NCBI RefSeq assembly: GCF_016808095.1
Contig: NC_068975.1
Location: 18,669,501-18,733,500 of the forward strand
Reading direction: 5' to 3'
Origin: Vigna angularis
Taxonomy: Eukaryota > Streptophyta > Magnoliopsida > Fabales > Fabaceae
DNA length: 64,000 nt
Shown: positions 36,424-44,808 of the stretch, one piece after another
Position numbering within the stretch: the stretch's first letter is position 1
Layout of the letters: every line of letters starts with the position of its first letter
The notes under the pieces: model-generated
Databases searched by the model: none
Seen by the model: the letters and a program-made list of their open reading frames with translations, nothing else
Told to the model about the DNA's origin: nothing
Program-made: the position numbers and the translations under genes

Positions 36424-36432
36424 CTATATATT

Positions 36433-36623
36433 GGTTTTTGCACCAAACTAGGCATATTTGCCTATAATATTACCAAAATGGGCAAATTCAACCAAAATTA
36501 CGAAAATGGAGAAGTCGTGGGGGGCTCAAACGACTTCAATTGAAGAAGTCGTGCCCCCCCTTGCACGACTTCACACTGTTCATATGTATAGTGTTGAAGT
36601 CGTGCACCCCAAAAACGACTTCT
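36433..36623 (+). repeat. MULE left terminal inverted repeat
   Basis: Aligns with the complement of the right end over essentially its whole length. It includes the outer GGTTTTTGCACCAAA and, further in, GTGTTGAAGTCGTGCACCCC. Inside are GAAGTCGT motifs facing ACGACTTC partners, three small head-to-head inverted pairs. Confidence 0.9.
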
Positions 36624-36630
36624 GATGACC

Positions 36631-36819
36631 GTAATCGATTACAATGTAATGGTAATCGATTATAGAGTGTTGAAATCGTGACCACCCTGCACGACTTCAA
36701 ATAAGTATGCCAAAAACGCACTGGTAATCGATTACAACACTTTTGTAATCGATTACCAGGTTGTATTTGGTGCAAGATTCATTCTGGTAAGCGATTACAA
36801 GGTTGTTGTAATCGATTAC
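36631..36819. repeat. Paired palindrome array, left subterminal (3 pairs)
   Basis: Six 12-bp sites of consensus GTAATCGATTAC (self-complementary) start at 36631, 36652, 36724, 36745, 36787 and 36808. They form three pairs, each exactly 21 bp centre to centre with a 9-nt spacer. Two sites carry a mismatch (36652 ends TAT; 36787 has GTAAGC). Confidence 0.92.
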
Positions 36820-37106
36820 CAATGTGTTTTTGGTTGGTTTTTGAAATTTTGTATTATAATTGTGGTGCATATTTTGAAGTTTATTAAGTGTATTGATATG
36901 AATTTGTGTAAGCACACATTGTTGTTGATTACATTGTGATGTATTGTTTTGTATAGGAAGAGTATATGATTTTATGTAATAGAAATAAGAGAAAATCATA
37001 AGATGAAATGAGAAATGAAATTTGTAGTATTTTATTGAATTAAAAGTGCATTACATAAGGAACAAGCTAAAATTAAAAGAAAAGGACAGTACAAATTGAA
37101 AGGCAT

Positions 37107-38300
37107 CTAGGAAGATGATACACCATGTGGACCAAAATGACGATGCAAATACTCAATGTCGTGCTCCACATGCTCAACTCGAGCATCAATAGTATCGAAG
37201 CGGTCACCCATGTTCAGCTCCAATTGTTCAAATCTTGCATTCATGCTTTCATTCATTGAGTGTATTGAAGCTGTCCCCAACAAATGTTCGGAGATCGTTT
37301 ATCCCCCTCATGACATCATCAAATCTACTAGTTTGTTGTTGACGAACTGGTGGTAGTTGTAGTTGAGGAGGTGGTTGATTTTGAGGTTGAGGTGGAGGAG
37401 GAGAATTTCTGTGCACCCATATGTTGTCAGCATTTTGGGTCAATCCAAATGATTGTATGACTCCTCCTGATATAGTCCAATGCCTAGTAGGTGGGACAAA
37501 TATTTCATCCTCTAGTGGAACTTCAAAATGTTCCAGGATGCGGGTGACCAAAGTTGGATATGGTAAAGGAGCACCTGGCCTCAAAGCCTTCTTCATCCTA
37601 TGTCGGATGAGATGGGTCCAGTTTATCTGCTTTGTCGTCATTATAATCCACGTTATCAGAAGATCTTTCTCAGTTGCCTGTGCAAAGTTAGAAACACGAG
37701 AAACAAAACACGACATATAGTATAATGTAATACTCTAGCCTCAGCTGTCATATTCCCTACTAGAATTCTACTGGTAGGGGGATTGTGTGGCAAACAAATT
37801 AATTGTCTGGCTACGTCTATATTATATTCATTGGCCCAATCCTCAAATAATTTCCCCTCAAAAGGCAACCCAACAAAGGGAAGATCGGCTATAGAAGCAA
37901 AAATGTTGGGTTTGATAATAATTTGGACATTGTTCACCTCAGTTTTCATTGTTCCATTTTCAGAAAGTTTGAGGTTACTATAAAACACACGTACCAAATC
38001 AGGATAATATGGAGCAAAATCGCAGCAAAATTCATCCAATCCCAAATTTTTGAGCATGCCAAAAAATTCAAAACTATGGCTCTCAAAATAATCGTCATCT
38101 AGATATTTTGGCTCAATGATTTGACGGTCTTTATATAAGGAGAAATACCTTTGGGCTAGTGCAGGAGTTGAAAATTGAAGATTTTGGTGTTCAGCAATGG
38201 GTGACAGTGAGTTTTCTGCCTGTGAAGGTTGATGGCGGTGACGTCCCCCACCTGTAGAAGATGACCCCCTTACTCTTTGACTTTTTGAAGATTCCGCCAT
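37107..38300 (-). pseudogene. 'Putative plant transposon protein' (Transposase_32-like) ORF, one frameshift
   Basis: Starts MAESSKSQRVRGSS at 38300. The conserved block RYFSLYKDRQIIEPKYLDDD, then APYYPDLVRVFYSNL and IKPNIFASIADLPFVGLPFE, is typical of a protein family common in legume genomes and called putative plant transposon protein. Function is unknown. Near 37700 the frame changes (VLHYTICRV to SRVSNFAQATEKDLLI), either a one-base indel or, less likely, an intron with acceptor at 37678. It continues with WIIMTTKQINWTHLIRHRMK, a Pro/Gln-rich stretch, and a second slip near 37255 into a short coiled-coil-like tail (ARFEQLELNMGDRF) ending GVSSS, stop 37107. It is carried within the MULE TIRs and transcribed toward the left end. 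Confidence 0.7.
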
Positions 38301-38501
38301 TTCAAAATCCAATCGGTGCAAATTGAACAAAATTGAAAGGGGAGTAAAATATGGTGTTTTGAAGTGAAAATGGTGGAAGAGAAGATGATTTTGGACCTTG
38401 GAGAGGATGGAAGACGCTGGGTGCCGCTGCTGCTGGAGTGGGAGTGGTGTGGGTTCGTGAGGAGAGAGAAAAAGTTGAATTTATAGACTAGGGTTGGGCT
38501 G

Positions 38502-38829
38502 GTAATCGATTACGGGTTTTCTGTAATCGATTACCATAGCCCACTGGTAATCGATTAAAGAAACCCTGTAATCGATTACCAGCCTATTTGGTTATGTATT
38601 ACAACAACTCCTGTACAACCCTTACAGTAAGTTTCTGGTAATCGATTACCAAAACGCTGTAATCGATTACCAGTCAGTCTGGTAATGCACAATACAAATT
38701 ATCCTGTAAGTCCTTACAGTGGTTATCTGGTAATCGATTACCAGCCTCCAGGGTAATGGATTACACCAATTTTTGACCCCTTACATTAAATTACTGGTAA
38801 TCGATTACAGGGTTTTCGTAATCGATTAC
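38502..38829. repeat. Paired palindrome array, internal (5 pairs)
   Basis: Ten sites start at 38502, 38523, 38547, 38568, 38638, 38659, 38730, 38753, 38797 and 38818. They make five pairs: four at 21 bp and one at 23 bp, the latter including the mismatch site GTAATGGATTAC. The array lies 200-530 bp upstream of the start of the gene at 37107-38300, that is in its promoter region, and downstream of the plant-mobile-domain gene. Most pairs are bounded by CTGG and CCAG. Confidence 0.92.
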
Positions 38830-39027
38830 CAGTGTTTGGAGGAACAAATTTTGATTTATTGTTTGCTTTAGAATTGATTGAATGCATTATCTATTAAAAT
38901 TGATTTCTATATAAAGTTGAATGCAATAATAACATCAGAGGATAACAGTTTATGATGATATAAATGTTATTCATTAATTAAAAATTATAAACAAATTACA
39001 TATTTATAAATAAAGAAGGCAAACAGT

Positions 39028-40979
39028 CTATCTATGTCCTCCAGTCCCACAAGGTGGTCTTCGTCGTTGTCGTTGGCCTCGCCTTTGTGATTGTTGTTGT
39101 AGTGTGGGACTCTGCGTGTGTTGGTCTTCATCCGTGGGATGACTTTCATTGCACTGTTGAAGGTTTTGAAAATCATATGTCGGTCGATACACGTTATGTG
39201 AGGATGAAGCGTGTGGGTATGAAGATGGTGGAGTCATTGTCGAGGTTCCAAAATAATGGGAAAAACCTCCACTGAACGGTGTTGATGGTGGAAAGGCGAA
39301 ATAAGAGGTCTCAACCCCAGGATATGTTGATGTCGGTGGGATGTTTTGTTGAAACCTTGAATTTGGAGGTGGATGTCGATAGTTGACATGGTCAGAGGCA
39401 GACCTTTGTGGATCATGATATGAAGAAGATGCACGTTATTGAGATGCCGGGTGGAACTATTCGTCGTGGTCCATGTCATACTGCCAAACACAGTGTGTGA
39501 TGTGAAGAACACAAGATATTAACACTTTCATAATTTATGTGGAGGGAATATTGTAGTACCTCTTCGTCGGTTGAATCTTCTATTATACCAATATAGCGGA
39601 TGGTATGAGTTATATACCACTGCATATACTCCGATTCATCTCACAATTGACCATTTTTCTAGAAAGGAATCCCGTTGAACACACGATTATGCCGGTCATT
39701 CCACAATGCAATCCATTGGTGATGATGTTCACGCCAATTCCAATCAGCGCGTCCTCTCATATCTTGTTTATGTTCCTCATCTAGATTCATCGATGGATGG
39801 GGTACATTTTGTCGAAATCCAAATTGTCGCATGACACGGTCTGATAGTTGGTATTCTACAACAGAGAAACATATAAGAGGCACAACTGCCCGACATGTCG
39901 GGGGCACTTCTACTTGAATGAGTTGAGAAATTTCACCACGTCTGTACGGTGTCCATACCAACTGCAGTTTTGAAGTTTTTGGTTTAAGTATTACTAATTA
40001 AGCCATGAAATGTTAACAAAATTTATAACACAATATTAAGTTCACAGTTGAAAAATACCTGTCTAGGTGATAGGTCGTCTATTTTCTGACGAAATTGTTT
40101 GACAGTTGTAGTGTCTTGGAATATTGACTGTTTTGTGCGACACCATCTTTTCGCAAGTGGAAAAACTGCACCAGAAGATATGTTGTGTTTTGTGACATCA
40201 AGTAATTCTGGTGAAAGACATGTTATTCTTTCCCATGCCCAACATTGTAACAAGATCATGCACCCTCCGATATTCTCTTGGTCAGCCCTAGTCCCATGAT
40301 CAAGGGCACGATACAAGCAGGAAAGCGTGGCAGATCCCCAGCTATACTGTGAAACGTTCTGCAGGTCCGCCAATAGGGGAAGATACATCAAATGCATCAT
40401 GCTTGCAGATGTATCTGGCATCATGACACTGCCAATCATGATCAACATATACGCTCTAGCGTATTGTTCAATAACATGTTCGGTGGCATCATGAGGCAAT
40501 TGGCGAAAAATGTTATTTAACCATGACAACTTGATTTTGTTACCCCTTACACAATTCTAAGGAGGAACATCTCCTAGTAGTTGATGACAAAAAACTGTTA
40601 GTGGACCACGACTGATGCTAGTCACCACATGTCCTTCAATAGGAAGCCCTAGTTGTAATGCAACGTCTTCCAATGTAATCGTACTTTCACCAAGAGGCAA
40701 GTGGAAAGTATGAGTCTCGACTCTCCACCTCTGAACCAAAGCAGTGACTAGCTGGTGATTTATCTCCATACTTGATGCTTGCAAAATATGGATAAACCCT
40801 GCTTCCTGTAGAATATTCTTTATTCTTTCATCAATTTCGTGGACATGCTTTGCTATCCAAATTGCATGTCTTCGAGGGCAAATGACTCGTTCATTGCCTT
40901 CCCAAATAGAATTCACGATGTGTTTATCTTGTAGACGTAGAAGGGACATATCAACGGGAAGTTGACGGGCAGAAGCCAT
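39028..40979 (-). pseudogene. Plant mobile domain protein (MAIN/MAIL1-like, 'phosphatase 7 long form' class)
   Basis: Exons are 40979-40059, 39961-39560 and 39480-39028, with GT-AG introns (40058-39962 and 39559-39481). The N-terminus MASARQLPVDMSLLRLQDKH, then LPLGESTITLEDVALQLGLP and RAYMLIMIGSVMMPD plus LVWTPYRRGEI, is the plant mobile domain (PF10536 class). The C-terminal exon is Ser/Pro/Gln-rich and ends RRPPCGTGGHR. Host relatives MAIN and MAIL1 act in transcriptional silencing and genome stability. Lesions are TAG at 40559-40557 after GDVPP (relatives have Glu), stops near 39658 and 39640, and two in the last exon (near 39459 and 39438). The gene is divergent from the transposase; the 1.3 kb between them holds the hairpin and a (TA)n tract. 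A single-stop gene with otherwise long open frames suggests recent decay. Confidence 0.75.
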
Positions 40980-41616
40980 ATTAAATTTTGTGGGTGAAAG
41001 TGGGTTATTAAAGCAATGAGAAAGGAGAAGTACTTTGGGTATTGGAACTCACAATTGAAATGGGTAGACAAGTGGGATATGAAAGCAAAGACAATGGTTA
41101 AGGGGTTTGGCTATTGGAACTCAGAACACGGTGGGAGAAATGAAATGCACCCTCCACCAATTTAAGTTCAAGCATTGATGCCTTAGAATCTTCAAAGTCA
41201 CGTGAATGAGGACATGGAAATGACAATTCATATAAGTTGTAATGAGTTCTCTTCAAAGAATCTTCAAACCTGCAAAAAACGAAAAAAAAAGAGAGGCATG
41301 TGATTGAATAGTAGTAGCATTGAAGGTAAAATCTGCACTAAATGTAGGCATGCAAATGAATAGGAACATGAATAGGAAAGTTGAATAGCAAAGTTGAAGA
41401 CCAAAGTTGAATAGCATTATTGGTGGTCAGAGGCAAATGTGGACAATGCATGTGTACAATCTCTTGTCACATACCACATAATATTGATGCATCCATAAAT
41501 ACCATTTAAAAATTTGTAATGAATATTCTTAAATGTATGTAATCAATTTTTATGAATTGTAAAAATATTATCCAATATTTAAGCATTTTATTAGAGTTTA
41601 TTTTTCAAATTGTAAA

Positions 41617-41790
41617 AATTATATAAATAGGATTTTTAAAAAAAAAAATCAAAAAAGGGAAGTTGTGGGGAGGGGGCACGACTTCAATAGGTGAAGTCGG
41701 GGGTACACGACTTCACCTATTGAAGTCGTGCCCCCTCCCCACAACTTTCCTTTTTTGATTTTTTTTTTTAAATTCTATTTGTATAATTTA
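41617..41790. repeat. Long near-perfect inverted repeat (hairpin) inside the MULE
   Basis: Arms of about 83 nt (about 41617-41699 and 41708-41790) surround an 8-nt centre GGGGTACA. The inner 60 nt of each arm are almost identical in inverted sense, including GAAGTCGTGCCCCCTCCCC (complement on the left). Only one mismatch was noted there; the outer A/T-rich part is less exact. The arms contain the GAAGTCGTGCCCCC motif also found in the TIRs. It lies between the divergent transposase and mobile-domain genes. Confidence 0.9.
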
Positions 41791-42001
41791 TGTATTTTAA
41801 ATTTTAATTATTTATAAACTATATTATTATTATAAATATAAATTCTACGTTATTTATTTGTTAACAACAATTAAACAAATTATTTTCTCAATAAGTACTT
41901 AAAAAACAAGTGGAGAAAAGCTTATATGAGAGGACACTGCAAATCACTTTATACGGAATGAAATAAATGTAATACTATACGTAGCTTATAATTGCATGGA
42001 A

Positions 42002-42006
<5 letters not shown>

Positions 42007-42073
<67 letters not shown>
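42007..42073. repeat. (TA)n microsatellite
   Basis: About 33 TA units about 200 bp upstream of the transposase start. Confidence 0.95.
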
Positions 42074-42075
<2 letters not shown>

Positions 42076-42272
42076 CAGTGCTATAGTCACAGTGCTATAT
42101 TCACAGTGCTATATTATTGTTTAGTACTTCCTATTATTTTAGACTGTAACACCCACTATATTCATGAACGTTTATACGCTCTATAACAACTCCATCTTCA
42201 CATCCAAACTGTACGTCCAAGAGCTCTCCTACTACTCCAATCTTACAAACTCTTCCCAACATTTATTCAAAT

Positions 42273-44268
42273 ATGGCATCAGGGAACTTACCAGCATCTT
42301 CATCATCGCAGTTGATCGATGAACAACCTTTAATATTGGATAACGTTGATGACTTCAGCACCGATGATGAATTAGACAACATACTCGAAGATGACAACAA
42401 CGACGACGACCACATCACACAATCATCTGCACATCTCGTTCTAGAGTTGAATCAAGGTATGCAGTTCCAGTCAAAGGAGGAAACTATTCTTGCAATCAAA
42501 CATTATCACATAACCAACGGTTACAAATAAACCGTCGTTGAGTCCAAACCCAACATTTATGTTATTCGTTGTCTGGAATATCACAACGGTTGTCAATGGC
42601 GTCTGAGGGCAGCTTATAGCAAAGTCCGTAAATATTGGGAAATCAAAAATATAGACAGACAACATTCGTGTTTCTCAACAATACTATCTCAAGATCATAC
42701 AAATCTTGATAGTACTCACATTGCCGCGATCATATCAAATTCAATCCGGACAAACCCATCCACTCCAATCAAGAGTTTGATTGCAGATATTAAGGGTCGA
42801 TTCGGATATTCTGTGTCATACAGAAAAGCTTGGATCGCTAAACAGAAGGCTCTTGCTATGGAGTTTGGAGACTGGGAGGACTCTTATAACCACATGCCAA
42901 GGTGGTTGCATGCCGTCAAGGAAGCAAACCCAGGTACAATTTTACAATGCACTGGTTCTCCGATGCATATTGATGGACAAACCGACAATAATTGCTATAT
43001 TATGGAAAGAGTTTTCTAGTCTTTCGGTCCTTGCATAGAAGGATTCAAATACTGTAAACTCATTCTCCAAGTTGATGGTACATTTCTAACGAGTAAATAT
43101 CATGGAACTTTGCTCACCGCCATAAGTCAAGATGGCAATAGAAATCTTTTCCCATTGGCCTTTGCCATTGTAGAAGGTGAGACAAAGGAGGCCTTGATAT
43201 GGTTCTTTCAACTACTTCGAGAACATGTTTGCCATCAACAAAATATTTGCATCATCACTAACAAGATGGTTTGAACTCTGTGTATTGCATACGTCATCTA
43301 GCATCCAACTTCAACAACAAATTCAAAAATCACGACCTCAAAAAACAATTCATCAATTTAGGTACTGCTACAAACATTCTTCAAACACTTATACTTTTAT
43401 AATTTTGTTAACATTATTCTTTAATTTATTTATTTATTACATCATTACAGCTTACGAGGTCAAGCAATCAACTGTCACGGCAAAACTTGCTGCATTGAGA
43501 AACCAATACCCATAACAAGTTGAATGGATAGATAAAATCCCATTACAAAAATGGTCTCAGGCTTTTGATGGAGGGAGAAGATATGGACATATGACGACTA
43601 ATCTTGTTGGGTGCACCAACTCCATTTTAAAGGGAGCACGTTCATTACCAATATATGCTCTCATCAGAACAACATTTGAGAGGACACAATCATGGTTTAT
43701 TGAACGCGGATTAAAGGCGAACTGTATGCTACAAGCAGGACACCAATATCCTGAACAAATCGCCGACATCATTAGGAAAAATCAACAACAATCCGCATTT
43801 TGTCATGTTCATCGCTACAACCGTGAAAATTCTGAATTTGATGTTCAGGAAATTTCAACACCTCACCACTACTGCCCTGTTCCACTTTCCTACAAGGTCA
43901 GCCTAAATGAATGGTGGTGTGATTGTGGACACTTCCAGGCTACTCATCTCCCATGTCATCATGTCATTGTTGTTTGTGCATTTTTGCATATCCCACTAAC
44001 CCAAGTAATTGATCCAGTGTACAGTCTTAACAACATTTTCAAGGCATACGAAGTACAATTTCACCCAATCCAAAATCAAGATTATTGGTCTGTGTATACA
44101 GGTCCAAACTTCATACCGGATCCTAAAATGCGACGCAAGGCATCCGGAAGACCATCTACAAATAGGCTTCATAATGAAATGGATCAATCCAATCCAGATA
44201 AGCCAAAAAAATGCTCTTACTGCCGCAACGAAGGTCATCATAGGGGAAATTGTCCTTTTCGTCATTAG
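42273..44268 (+). pseudogene. MuDR-type MULE transposase, inactivated
   Basis: Starts MASGNLPASSSSQ with an acidic N-terminus. A MuDR DNA-binding region follows (KEETILAIKHYHITNG ... YNGC-type EYHNGCQWRLRA). The MULE transposase core has LQVDGTFLTSKYHGTLLTAI (first catalytic Asp present) and FPLAFAIVEGETKEALIWFF. The second acidic block reads CIITNKMV, where CIITDRG-type is expected, so the Asp is replaced and sequence is deleted. After YCIRHLASNFNNKF, an intron is likely (about 43362-43450). Then come EWWCDCGHFQATHLPCHH (SWIM zinc finger) and CSYCRNEGHHRGNCP (CCHC knuckle). Stops lie at 42528, 43017 and 43270 and near 43513. It catalyses cut-and-paste transposition in functional relatives. 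Confidence 0.88.
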
Positions 44269-44427
44269 TTATTTCTTAATCTTACCCAATTGTAATCAAA
44301 TCGATGACTGATATATTACTATTAATATTTCTTATTAATATTTATTTTCTCTTTTCCTATAACACAATCAATACATAACATATGTAAAATGCAAAATCAT
44401 TTTCATAAACCAATCAAAAACACACTG

Positions 44428-44614
44428 GTAATCGATTACACAAACCCTGTAATAGATTACCAGAGTGCTTCTTACTACACAACCAACCTGGTAATCGATT
44501 ACCGAAATGTCGTAATCGATTACCAGTACGTTTTCTGCCTACACATTTCCAGTTACGCAGGGGTCACGATTTCAATACTCTGTAATCGATTACCAAATCA
44601 ATGTAATCGATTAC
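44428..44614. repeat. Paired palindrome array, right subterminal (3 pairs)
   Basis: Six sites start at 44428, 44449, 44491, 44512, 44582 and 44603, again three pairs at exactly 21 bp. One carries a mismatch (GTAATAGATTAC). The array mirrors the left subterminal one: the gaps between neighbouring pairs are 42 and 70 bp here, and 72 and 42 bp at the left end. Confidence 0.92.
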
Positions 44615-44621
44615 AGGACCC

Positions 44622-44799
44622 TGAAGTCGTTTTTGGGGTGCACGACTTCAACACTGTAGCTATGCACAGTGTGAAGTCGTGCAGGGGGGCACGACTTCTT
44701 CCTTTGAAGTCGTTTTGGCCCCCACGACTTCACTTTGGGTCAAATTTTGCCTATTTTGGTAATAAAGAGGGCATATTTGCCTACTTTGGTGCAAAAACC
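44622..44799 (-). repeat. MULE right terminal inverted repeat
   Basis: Complement of the left TIR from GGTTTTTGCACCAAA inward to GCACCCCAAAAACGACTTC. It is slightly shorter than the left TIR because of small indels. Confidence 0.9.
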
Positions 44800-44808
44800 C
44801 TATATCTT

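What the first reader, a model, noticed from the sequence alone, without database searches (positions are those of the whole stretch)
36631..44614. Helically phased pairs of a 12-bp palindrome decorate a MULE (22 sites, 11 pairs)
Seen directly: consensus GTAATCGATTAC, a perfect palindrome, occurs 22 times (a few with one mismatch) in three clusters within the MULE: 3 pairs left subterminal, 5 pairs internal, 3 pairs right subterminal. I found none outside the element in this window. In 10 of 11 pairs the centres are exactly 21 bp apart (9-nt spacer of unrelated sequence), one is 23 bp; gaps between neighbouring pairs are 24, 42, 42, 44 or 63-72 bp. 21 and 42 bp are two and four helical turns, so a dimer pair would bind one DNA face. 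Spacers are not conserved while spacing is, which argues for selection on geometry. Known parallel: VANDAL MULEs encode VANC, an anti-silencing protein that binds short motif clusters in their own non-coding DNA. Inference: these pairs are target sites for an element-encoded or host factor (TAAT..ATTA halves also suit homeodomain dimers).
Basis: partly seen in the sequence, partly recalled or inferred. Interest (0 to 1): 0.88.

Follow-up and report, generated by a model that had tools for sequence, protein, structure and literature searches.

The report
Paired palindromes built into bean MULEs
A jumping gene in what is most likely the adzuki bean genome carries many copies of a 12-letter palindrome set in pairs two DNA turns apart, and its relatives keep such pairs, which suggests a built-in docking site for a protein that has not been identified.

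Summary
In detail: 22 sites of GTAATCGATTAC (17 exact) form 11 pairs, 10 at 21 bp and one at 23 bp, inside a decayed MULE (36433-44799). Two corrections follow. The left and right clusters lie inside ~0.4-kb terminal inverted repeats (TIRs) and mirror each other, so at most 8 pairs are independent. Several of these are old, partly inverted duplicates with alignable flanks and spacers. In close copies spacer length changes about as often as flank length (3 of 60 against 7-8%), so within the family 21 bp is mostly inheritance.

The motif itself is constrained. A motif-free TIR query gave 40 scored places of 322 candidates; the 39 besides the window all carry a pair 194-199 bp from the TIR end, including 7 whose inner sequence is unrelated. 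The genome holds 788 exact pairs at 12-42 bp, 652 of them at 21 bp. A second family, probably also a MULE, has such a pair ~150 bp upstream of a distant Transposase_32 gene. Peptides that read like the motif recur every 7 residues in Lupinus albus proteins.

Best reading: a bipartite docking module for an element-encoded DNA-binding protein (or a borrowed host one) at the ends and at one promoter, working like TNPA or VANC sites. The binder is unknown.

The parts
36424..36432 (.). left target-site duplication CTATATATT
   Evidence: read, compared (8 of 9 identical to the right one)
36433..36846 (+). left TIR of the MULE; distal part 36433-36625 is motif-free, proximal part holds 3 pairs
   Evidence: inverted repeats I1, I2, I5 and TIR alignment
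36631..36663 (.). pair 1, 21 bp, starts at base 199 of the TIR; a pair is present here at 39 of 39 other TIR places examined
36724..36756 (.). pair 2, 21 bp
36787..36819 (.). pair 3, 21 bp; inverted duplicate of pair 2
   Evidence: (I4)
37249..38300 (-). Transposase_32 (PF20167) gene in two frames (frameshifted); each piece is under the Pfam cut-off of 45 bits
   Evidence: (31.8 and 30.1 bits)
38480..38485 (-). TATA-like TATAAA of the Transposase_32 gene, just downstream of the internal cluster
   Evidence: read; consensus recalled, not tested
38502..38579 (.). pairs 4 and 5 (21 bp each), inverted duplicates of each other; nearest site 201 bp upstream of the gene's ATG
38638..38670 (.). pair 6, 21 bp
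38730..38764 (.). pair 7, the only 23-bp pair
38797..38829 (.). pair 8, 21 bp
39659..40979 (-). plant mobile domain (PF10536) gene, antisense to the transposase, broken
42273..44268 (+). MURA-type transposase remnant: DBD_Tnp_Mut, MULE, SWIM and a sub-cut-off zinc-finger match (PF16588) near the C-terminus; in-frame stops
44401..44799 (-). right TIR
44428..44460 (.). pair 3', mirror of pair 3
44491..44523 (.). pair 2', mirror of pair 2
44582..44614 (.). pair 1', mirror of pair 1
44800..44808 (.). right target-site duplication CTATATCTT

Best explanation
The pairs are a bipartite protein-docking module of a MULE lineage. Two copies of a 12-bp palindrome, centres two helical turns apart, are bound by a dimer or tetramer, most likely made by an autonomous member of the lineage. 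At the TIRs the module helps the ends to be recognised or brought together. Upstream of the Transposase_32 gene the same protein regulates or keeps open that promoter. Shown: anatomy, conservation of the motif, fixed place in the TIR, a place upstream of Transposase_32 in two families. Inferred: that a protein binds, which one, and what binding does.
For: A pair starts 194-199 bp from the TIR end at 39 of 39 other places found with a motif-free query (the 40 scored, window included, of 322 candidates), at 21 bp in 35, 20 in 2 and 22 in 2. At 7 of these the inner flank is unrelated (1 to 2 of 15 letters) and the spacer is different, yet a pair is there. Between the two TIRs of the window element the motif is identical at 69 of 72 positions against 16 of 27 in spacers and 127 of 167 in nearby flanks. 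In the 24 of 39 places that align inward, mean majority frequency is 0.893 (motif), 0.769 (spacer), 0.824 (flank). In copy L125, over the aligned 7 of 10 internal sites, 83 of 84 motif letters are kept while flanks keep 93 of 145. CpG in the motif is kept in 70 of 74 cases against 494 of 673 elsewhere in the element. Family 2 (L146, L148, L151) has a 21-bp pair 144, 155 and 144 bp upstream of the ATG of Transposase_32 genes only 38% identical to the window's N-terminal piece and 35% to its C-terminal piece (L146); the 2-kb stretches around those pairs show no blastn match to the window element at 1e-10 (L133, L140, L143).
Against: No binding protein was identified. AlphaFold of a Transposase_32 homologue is poor (pLDDT 47.5). 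The 150 scored Transposase_32 places of the genome (of 3032 candidates) have 223-241 bits against 61-72 for the family-2 proteins; by eye none of the 10 on C1 below 42.97 Mb lies within 50 kb of a listed exact 21-bp pair, so the domain by itself does not predict the motif. Motif-like arrays also occur next to frames that look like retroelement parts by recall only (L151 1759-2570: no Pfam match; P0021 and P0025), which suits a host factor as well. Searches used copies chosen for exact pairs, so they are biased towards intact sites. Of 57 pairs in other family-1 loci 10 are not at 21 bp.
Confidence: 0.42

Rival explanations
1. The pairs are sites of a host transcription factor that several legume transposons have borrowed as promoter or enhancer parts.
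For: The module occurs in the window family, in family 2 and in an ORF-poor family 3, as peptides next to zinc-knuckle-like parts (by eye) in Lupinus albus proteins P0021 and P0025, and as a variant ATAATCGATTAT with six 20-21 bp pairs in L151. The internal cluster lies just upstream of a TATA-like box.
Against: A pair is kept at a fixed distance from the TIR end at places with unrelated inner sequence, which fits a role at the ends better than a promoter role. The HD-Zip III probe is an 11-mer and differs by one base at the centre. Host promoters were not examined.
Confidence: 0.28
2. The pairs are kept or generated as foldback structure: single strands form hairpins of 12-27 bp with a 9-nt loop, useful for or a by-product of template switching in modular MULE TIRs.
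For: Strong folds (z -7.5 to -15.5 in 4 stretches); pairs are partly inverted duplicates; family 3 has arms of up to 27 bp around a 9-nt spacer; in the family-2 loci 34 of 41 arm departures are the same on both arms, mostly tandem copies of one change and including the variant pairs of L151; outer flanks differ between groups but are often symmetric (CTG/CAG, GGTATG/CATACC). TIRs built of modules forming a foldback are described for MULEs (PMC4486113 passage).
Against: In the window 0 of 5 arm departures are compensated, in other family-1 loci 0 of 34, in family 3 0 of 21. A hairpin would tolerate varied loops, yet 652 of 788 exact pairs have exactly 9 nt, although descent explains part of that.
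Confidence: 0.17
3. No present function: an ancestral TIR segment with palindromes was duplicated and inherited, and spacing reflects descent only.
For: Spacers and flanks are alignable, spacer length changes are about as frequent as in flanks (3 of 60 against 7-8%), and the genes of the window copy are broken.
Against: The motif is better kept than spacers and flanks, CpG in it is lost less than elsewhere, and a pair survives where the neighbouring sequence is different.
Confidence: 0.13

Closest known systems
VANC / VANDAL anti-silencing system of Arabidopsis (PMC5735166, passages seen; abstract and section list of PMC10398659)
   Same: A MULE lineage with short motifs clustered in its own non-coding DNA, expanding by tandem repeats, next to an extra element gene; here the ~282-bp arrays of family 2 and the cluster upstream of Transposase_32.
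   Different: Motif is a 12-bp palindrome in 21-bp pairs, not 9-bp YAGTATTAY in one orientation; sites lie in long TIRs; Pfam found only Transposase_32 and PMD beside the transposase, and no VANC sequence was compared; anti-silencing untested.
CACTA (En/Spm, soybean Tgm) subterminal repeats bound by TNPA (PMC2613891, passages seen)
   Same: Reiterated short motif near both ends, partner of an element-encoded DNA-binding protein needed for transposition.
   Different: Superfamily differs: 9-bp TSD, MURA-type transposase, no CACTA end; sites here also sit upstream of an internal gene.
Maize MuDR TIR (MURA ~32-bp site and promoters in the TIR; PMC3310237, passages seen)
   Same: TIR carries both transposase sites and regulatory elements.
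   Different: No paired palindrome is mentioned in the passages seen; the first pair here lies ~195 bp in, beyond a well conserved distal TIR.
HD-Zip III site GTAATGATTAC (probe in PMC6478692, passage seen)
   Same: GTAAT...ATTAC half-sites.
   Different: 12 bp with CG at the centre instead of 11 bp.

Membership tests
Mutator-like element (MULE) | MURA-type transposase domains | tested here: met
   DBD_Tnp_Mut 4.1e-07, MULE 3.3e-13, SWIM 8.6e-06, all over the Pfam cut-off
Mutator-like element (MULE) | about 9-bp target-site duplication | tested here: met
   CTATATATT / CTATATCTT, 8 of 9
Mutator-like element (MULE) | long TIRs | tested here: met
   about 0.4 kb, 80-87% complementary in three blocks
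VANDAL with VANC anti-silencing | dense short motifs in the element's own non-coding DNA | tested here: met
   22 sites
VANDAL with VANC anti-silencing | motif enriched in one family and rare in other transposons | tested here: not met
   same motif in families 2 and 3
VANDAL with VANC anti-silencing | VANC protein homologue and loss of methylation | tested here: inconclusive
   Pfam shows only Transposase_32 and PMD beside the transposase; no VANC sequence was compared; methylation not testable
CACTA / En-Spm | CACTA end, 3-bp TSD, tnp2 transposase | tested here: not met
   end GGTTTTTGC, 9-bp TSD, MURA-type domains
HD-Zip III target | 11-bp GTAAT(G/C)ATTAC | tested here: not met
   0 matches of GTAATSATTAC in the window; the sites are 12 bp with a CG centre; class consensus recalled, one probe seen
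foldback / modular-TIR MULE | TIRs built of palindromic modules | tested here: met
   inverted repeats inside each TIR (I4, I8)

The most novel reading that the evidence does not exclude
A legume-wide transposon operator: a two-turn pair of GTAATCGATTAC palindromes is a standard part shared by several transposon families, recognised by an element-encoded oligomeric protein (candidate: the MULE-type Transposase_32 protein with its long C-terminal helix). That protein would act both as an end-binding factor for transposition and as regulator or anti-silencer of its own promoter, a system unrelated to VANC and TNPA.
Probability: 0.2. Interest if true: 0.85.

Novelty: new variant of a known kind. 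Interest (0 to 1): 0.58.

Why it matters
MULEs are major gene movers in plants, and to my knowledge (recalled) few of the proteins that read their non-coding DNA are known, maize MURA and Arabidopsis VANC being the best studied. Here the cis half of such a system is defined to the base, kept at a fixed place at 39 of 39 TIR places examined, and present as 652 exact 21-bp pairs in one genome, so the binder could be sought with one pull-down or DAP-seq. Reappearance in other families, and of motif-like peptides in lupin proteins, offers a way to test whether legume transposons share regulatory parts.

Tried and rejected
Helical phasing as proof of selection: rejected as stated, because spacers share ancestry and their length changes about as often as flanks do. 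Transposase_32 as a general partner of the motif: not borne out by the 150 scored of 3032 candidate places. Structure of Transposase_32: one AlphaFold job, pLDDT 47.5, not used for fold search. Motif in print: one search searched four forms of the motif in 5.39 million papers and listed 4, whose titles and abstracts concern bacteria (3) and amphioxus (1); (MULE, subterminal, palindrome, soybean, Vigna and VANDAL terms) show nothing on this motif in the titles and abstracts listed. Viral contigs: 0 exact pairs.

Not done: single-site count, a protein-based test of Transposase_32 promoters (not completed), and a count of ATAATCGATTAT pairs (not asked). Whether family 2 has TIRs was not tested. 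The dN/dS script stopped with an error half-way; its finished rows give 0.51 for family-2 Transposase_32 (L146 against L148) and 0.41-0.76 for window pieces against copies.
Full report
WHAT IS THERE. The window is C6:18669501-18733500 of a 448-Mb genome. Contig C10 has exactly the length (31,493,818) listed as the longest contig of a Vigna angularis protein record, P0006, so the genome is most likely adzuki bean. The 22 sites and 11 pairs were confirmed. The element is a MULE, 36433-44799, with TIRs of about 0.4 kb and a 9-bp target duplication matching at 8 of 9. It holds remnants of a MURA transposase on the plus strand, and of a PMD gene and a Transposase_32 gene on the minus strand; the two Transposase_32 pieces score 31.8 and 30.1 bits, each under the cut-off of 45. 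All three genes are interrupted. PMD antisense to the transposase is listed for most MUDR-group elements (PMC6446971, table passage).

HOW MANY INDEPENDENT PAIRS. The left and right clusters lie in the two TIRs and are mirror copies. That leaves three TIR pairs plus five internal pairs. The internal cluster starts 201 bp upstream of the Transposase_32 ATG, just beyond a TATA-like sequence (38480-38485). Most pairs extend to CTG-GTAATCGATTAC-n9-GTAATCGATTAC-CAG, a 39-bp dyad. Excluding motif letters, contexts of pairs 36724/36787, 38547/38638 and 38502/38547 match at 30, 29 and 27 of 49 positions, above the 99.9% point (25) of random places; pair 36631 matches none. Oriented spacers share a weak consensus in the window set, family 1, family 3 and all together (0 of 200 shuffles each), but not in family 2 alone (39 of 200 shuffles reach it, 4 spacers). 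So pairs multiplied by old duplications, some inverted.

IS THE MOTIF CONSTRAINED. Between the element's two TIRs the motif is identical at 69 of 72, spacers at 16 of 27, nearby flanks at 127 of 167. Across 10 family loci on contig C1, chosen because they hold exact pairs and with TIRs compared to both window TIRs, the figures are 1293 of 1329, 352 of 482 and 2174 of 2642. To avoid that choice, the distal TIR without any motif was used as query: the 40 scored of 322 candidates include the window itself. All 39 others were fetched; they are TIR places, not necessarily 39 separate elements, two of them (L192, L193) lie in loci seen before, and the unscored candidates are unseen. All 39 have a pair starting 194-199 bp from the end; of 74 pairs found within 18-24 bp, 68 are at 21 bp, 3 at 20, 2 at 22 and 1 at 18. 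In 24 of 39 that align inward, majority frequencies are 0.893 motif, 0.769 spacer, 0.824 flank, 0.961 distal TIR (12 of the 24 lack DNA homologous to the third pair, which lowers the motif figure). At seven places (L160, L173, L177, L184, L188, L189, L192) the DNA inside the pair is unrelated to the window's and the spacer differs, but a pair stands at the same place, at 21 bp in 4, 20 in 2 and 22 in 1. Motif CpG is kept in 70 of 74 cases against 494 of 673 elsewhere in the element (biased loci).

IS THE SPACING CONSTRAINED. Genome-wide, 788 exact pairs lie 12-42 bp apart, 736 with gaps 5-14, 652 with a gap of exactly 9; the reversed-pattern control is 0 in each. The 788 also include neighbours of two different pairs (24 and 42 bp in the rows listed). 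But copies share descent. In close copies 3 of 60 spacers changed length, against 365 of 4440 distal and 127 of 1812 proximal 9-bp windows, which overlap. In other family-1 loci 47 of 57 pairs found within 19-24 bp are at 21 bp, 6 at 20, 2 at 22, 1 at 23, 1 at 19. So within-family constancy is no evidence for selection on geometry. Support comes from distant comparisons only. Family 2 (L146, L148, L151) is probably a MULE: SWIM zinc-finger frames in L146 and L151, none found in the L148 frames tested. It has an unbroken Transposase_32 frame in L146 and L148 (38% and 35% identical to the window's two pieces) with a 21-bp pair 144-155 bp upstream of the ATG, plus tandem units of about 282 bp holding GTAATCGTTTAC-n9-GTAAACGATTAC. 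Family 3 has 29 pairs within 19-24 bp, all at 21 bp, often inside longer inverted repeats, and one further pair at 25 bp in L153. A composite translation of window pairs found two Lupinus albus and six unnamed proteins with E <= 10 among 5909 candidates, in which the two motif frames (VIDY, NRL) often repeat every 7 residues, that is 21 bp; only the best has E below 0.001, the query itself favours 7-residue spacing, and the DNA of those hits was not seen. A Vigna angularis protein, P0001, shows the same 7-residue step in a TIR-like context. Vigna and Lupinus belong to different papilionoid clades. The strict spacing is therefore suggestive, not proven.

HOW IT MOST LIKELY WORKS. A protein dimer on each palindrome, paired on one face of the helix, is the simplest model (inference). 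A fixed place in the TIR points to the ends; position upstream of Transposase_32 in two families points to promoter control. Maize MuDR TIRs combine both (PMC3310237 passages). TNPA and VANC are the nearest functional models (passages). Candidate binder: an element protein; a MULE-type Transposase_32 homologue (P0005) ends in a long predicted helix (low confidence), the family-2 gene evolves under moderate constraint (dN/dS 0.51) and sits beside pairs, but the domain also occurs at very many other places and is related to Athila ORF1 (PMC11728184 passage). A host factor remains open.

VERDICT. Real, conserved, and not found in print by the searches made. It is a new variant of a known kind: transposon-borne clustered sites. 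The phasing argument needs the between-family count.

Noticed in passing
window 41635-41772: Nearly perfect 65-bp foldback (98%) made of the TIR-like words GAAGTCGTG/CACGACTTC inside the MULE (I3).
   Followed up: no
window 36511-36700 and 44623-44730: A second repeated word, GAAGTCGTG/CACGACTTC, decorates both TIRs (D7, D8, D10).
   Followed up: no
L151 1759-2570: Six pairs of a variant palindrome ATAATCGATTAT at 20-21 bp, outside the MULE-like part, near a frame that resembles a copia gag region by recall only; no Pfam match.
   Followed up: partly
L144, L145, L147, L150, L152, L153: Repeat family with inverted arms of up to 27 bp around the 9-nt spacer, in units of about 280 or 700 bp and few long frames.
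   Followed up: partly
G000 C1:42971194-42971247: Three exact sites in a row at 21-bp steps.
   Followed up: no
   Followed up: no
P0021, P0025 (Lupinus albus): Predicted proteins with zinc-knuckle-like parts (by eye, no Pfam domain listed) followed by 7-residue arrays that read like the motif at a 21-bp period.
   Followed up: partly
G000, PF20167 search: 3032 candidate places for Transposase_32 in one genome; the 150 scored have above 220 bits and many lie close together on their contigs (by eye).
   Followed up: no
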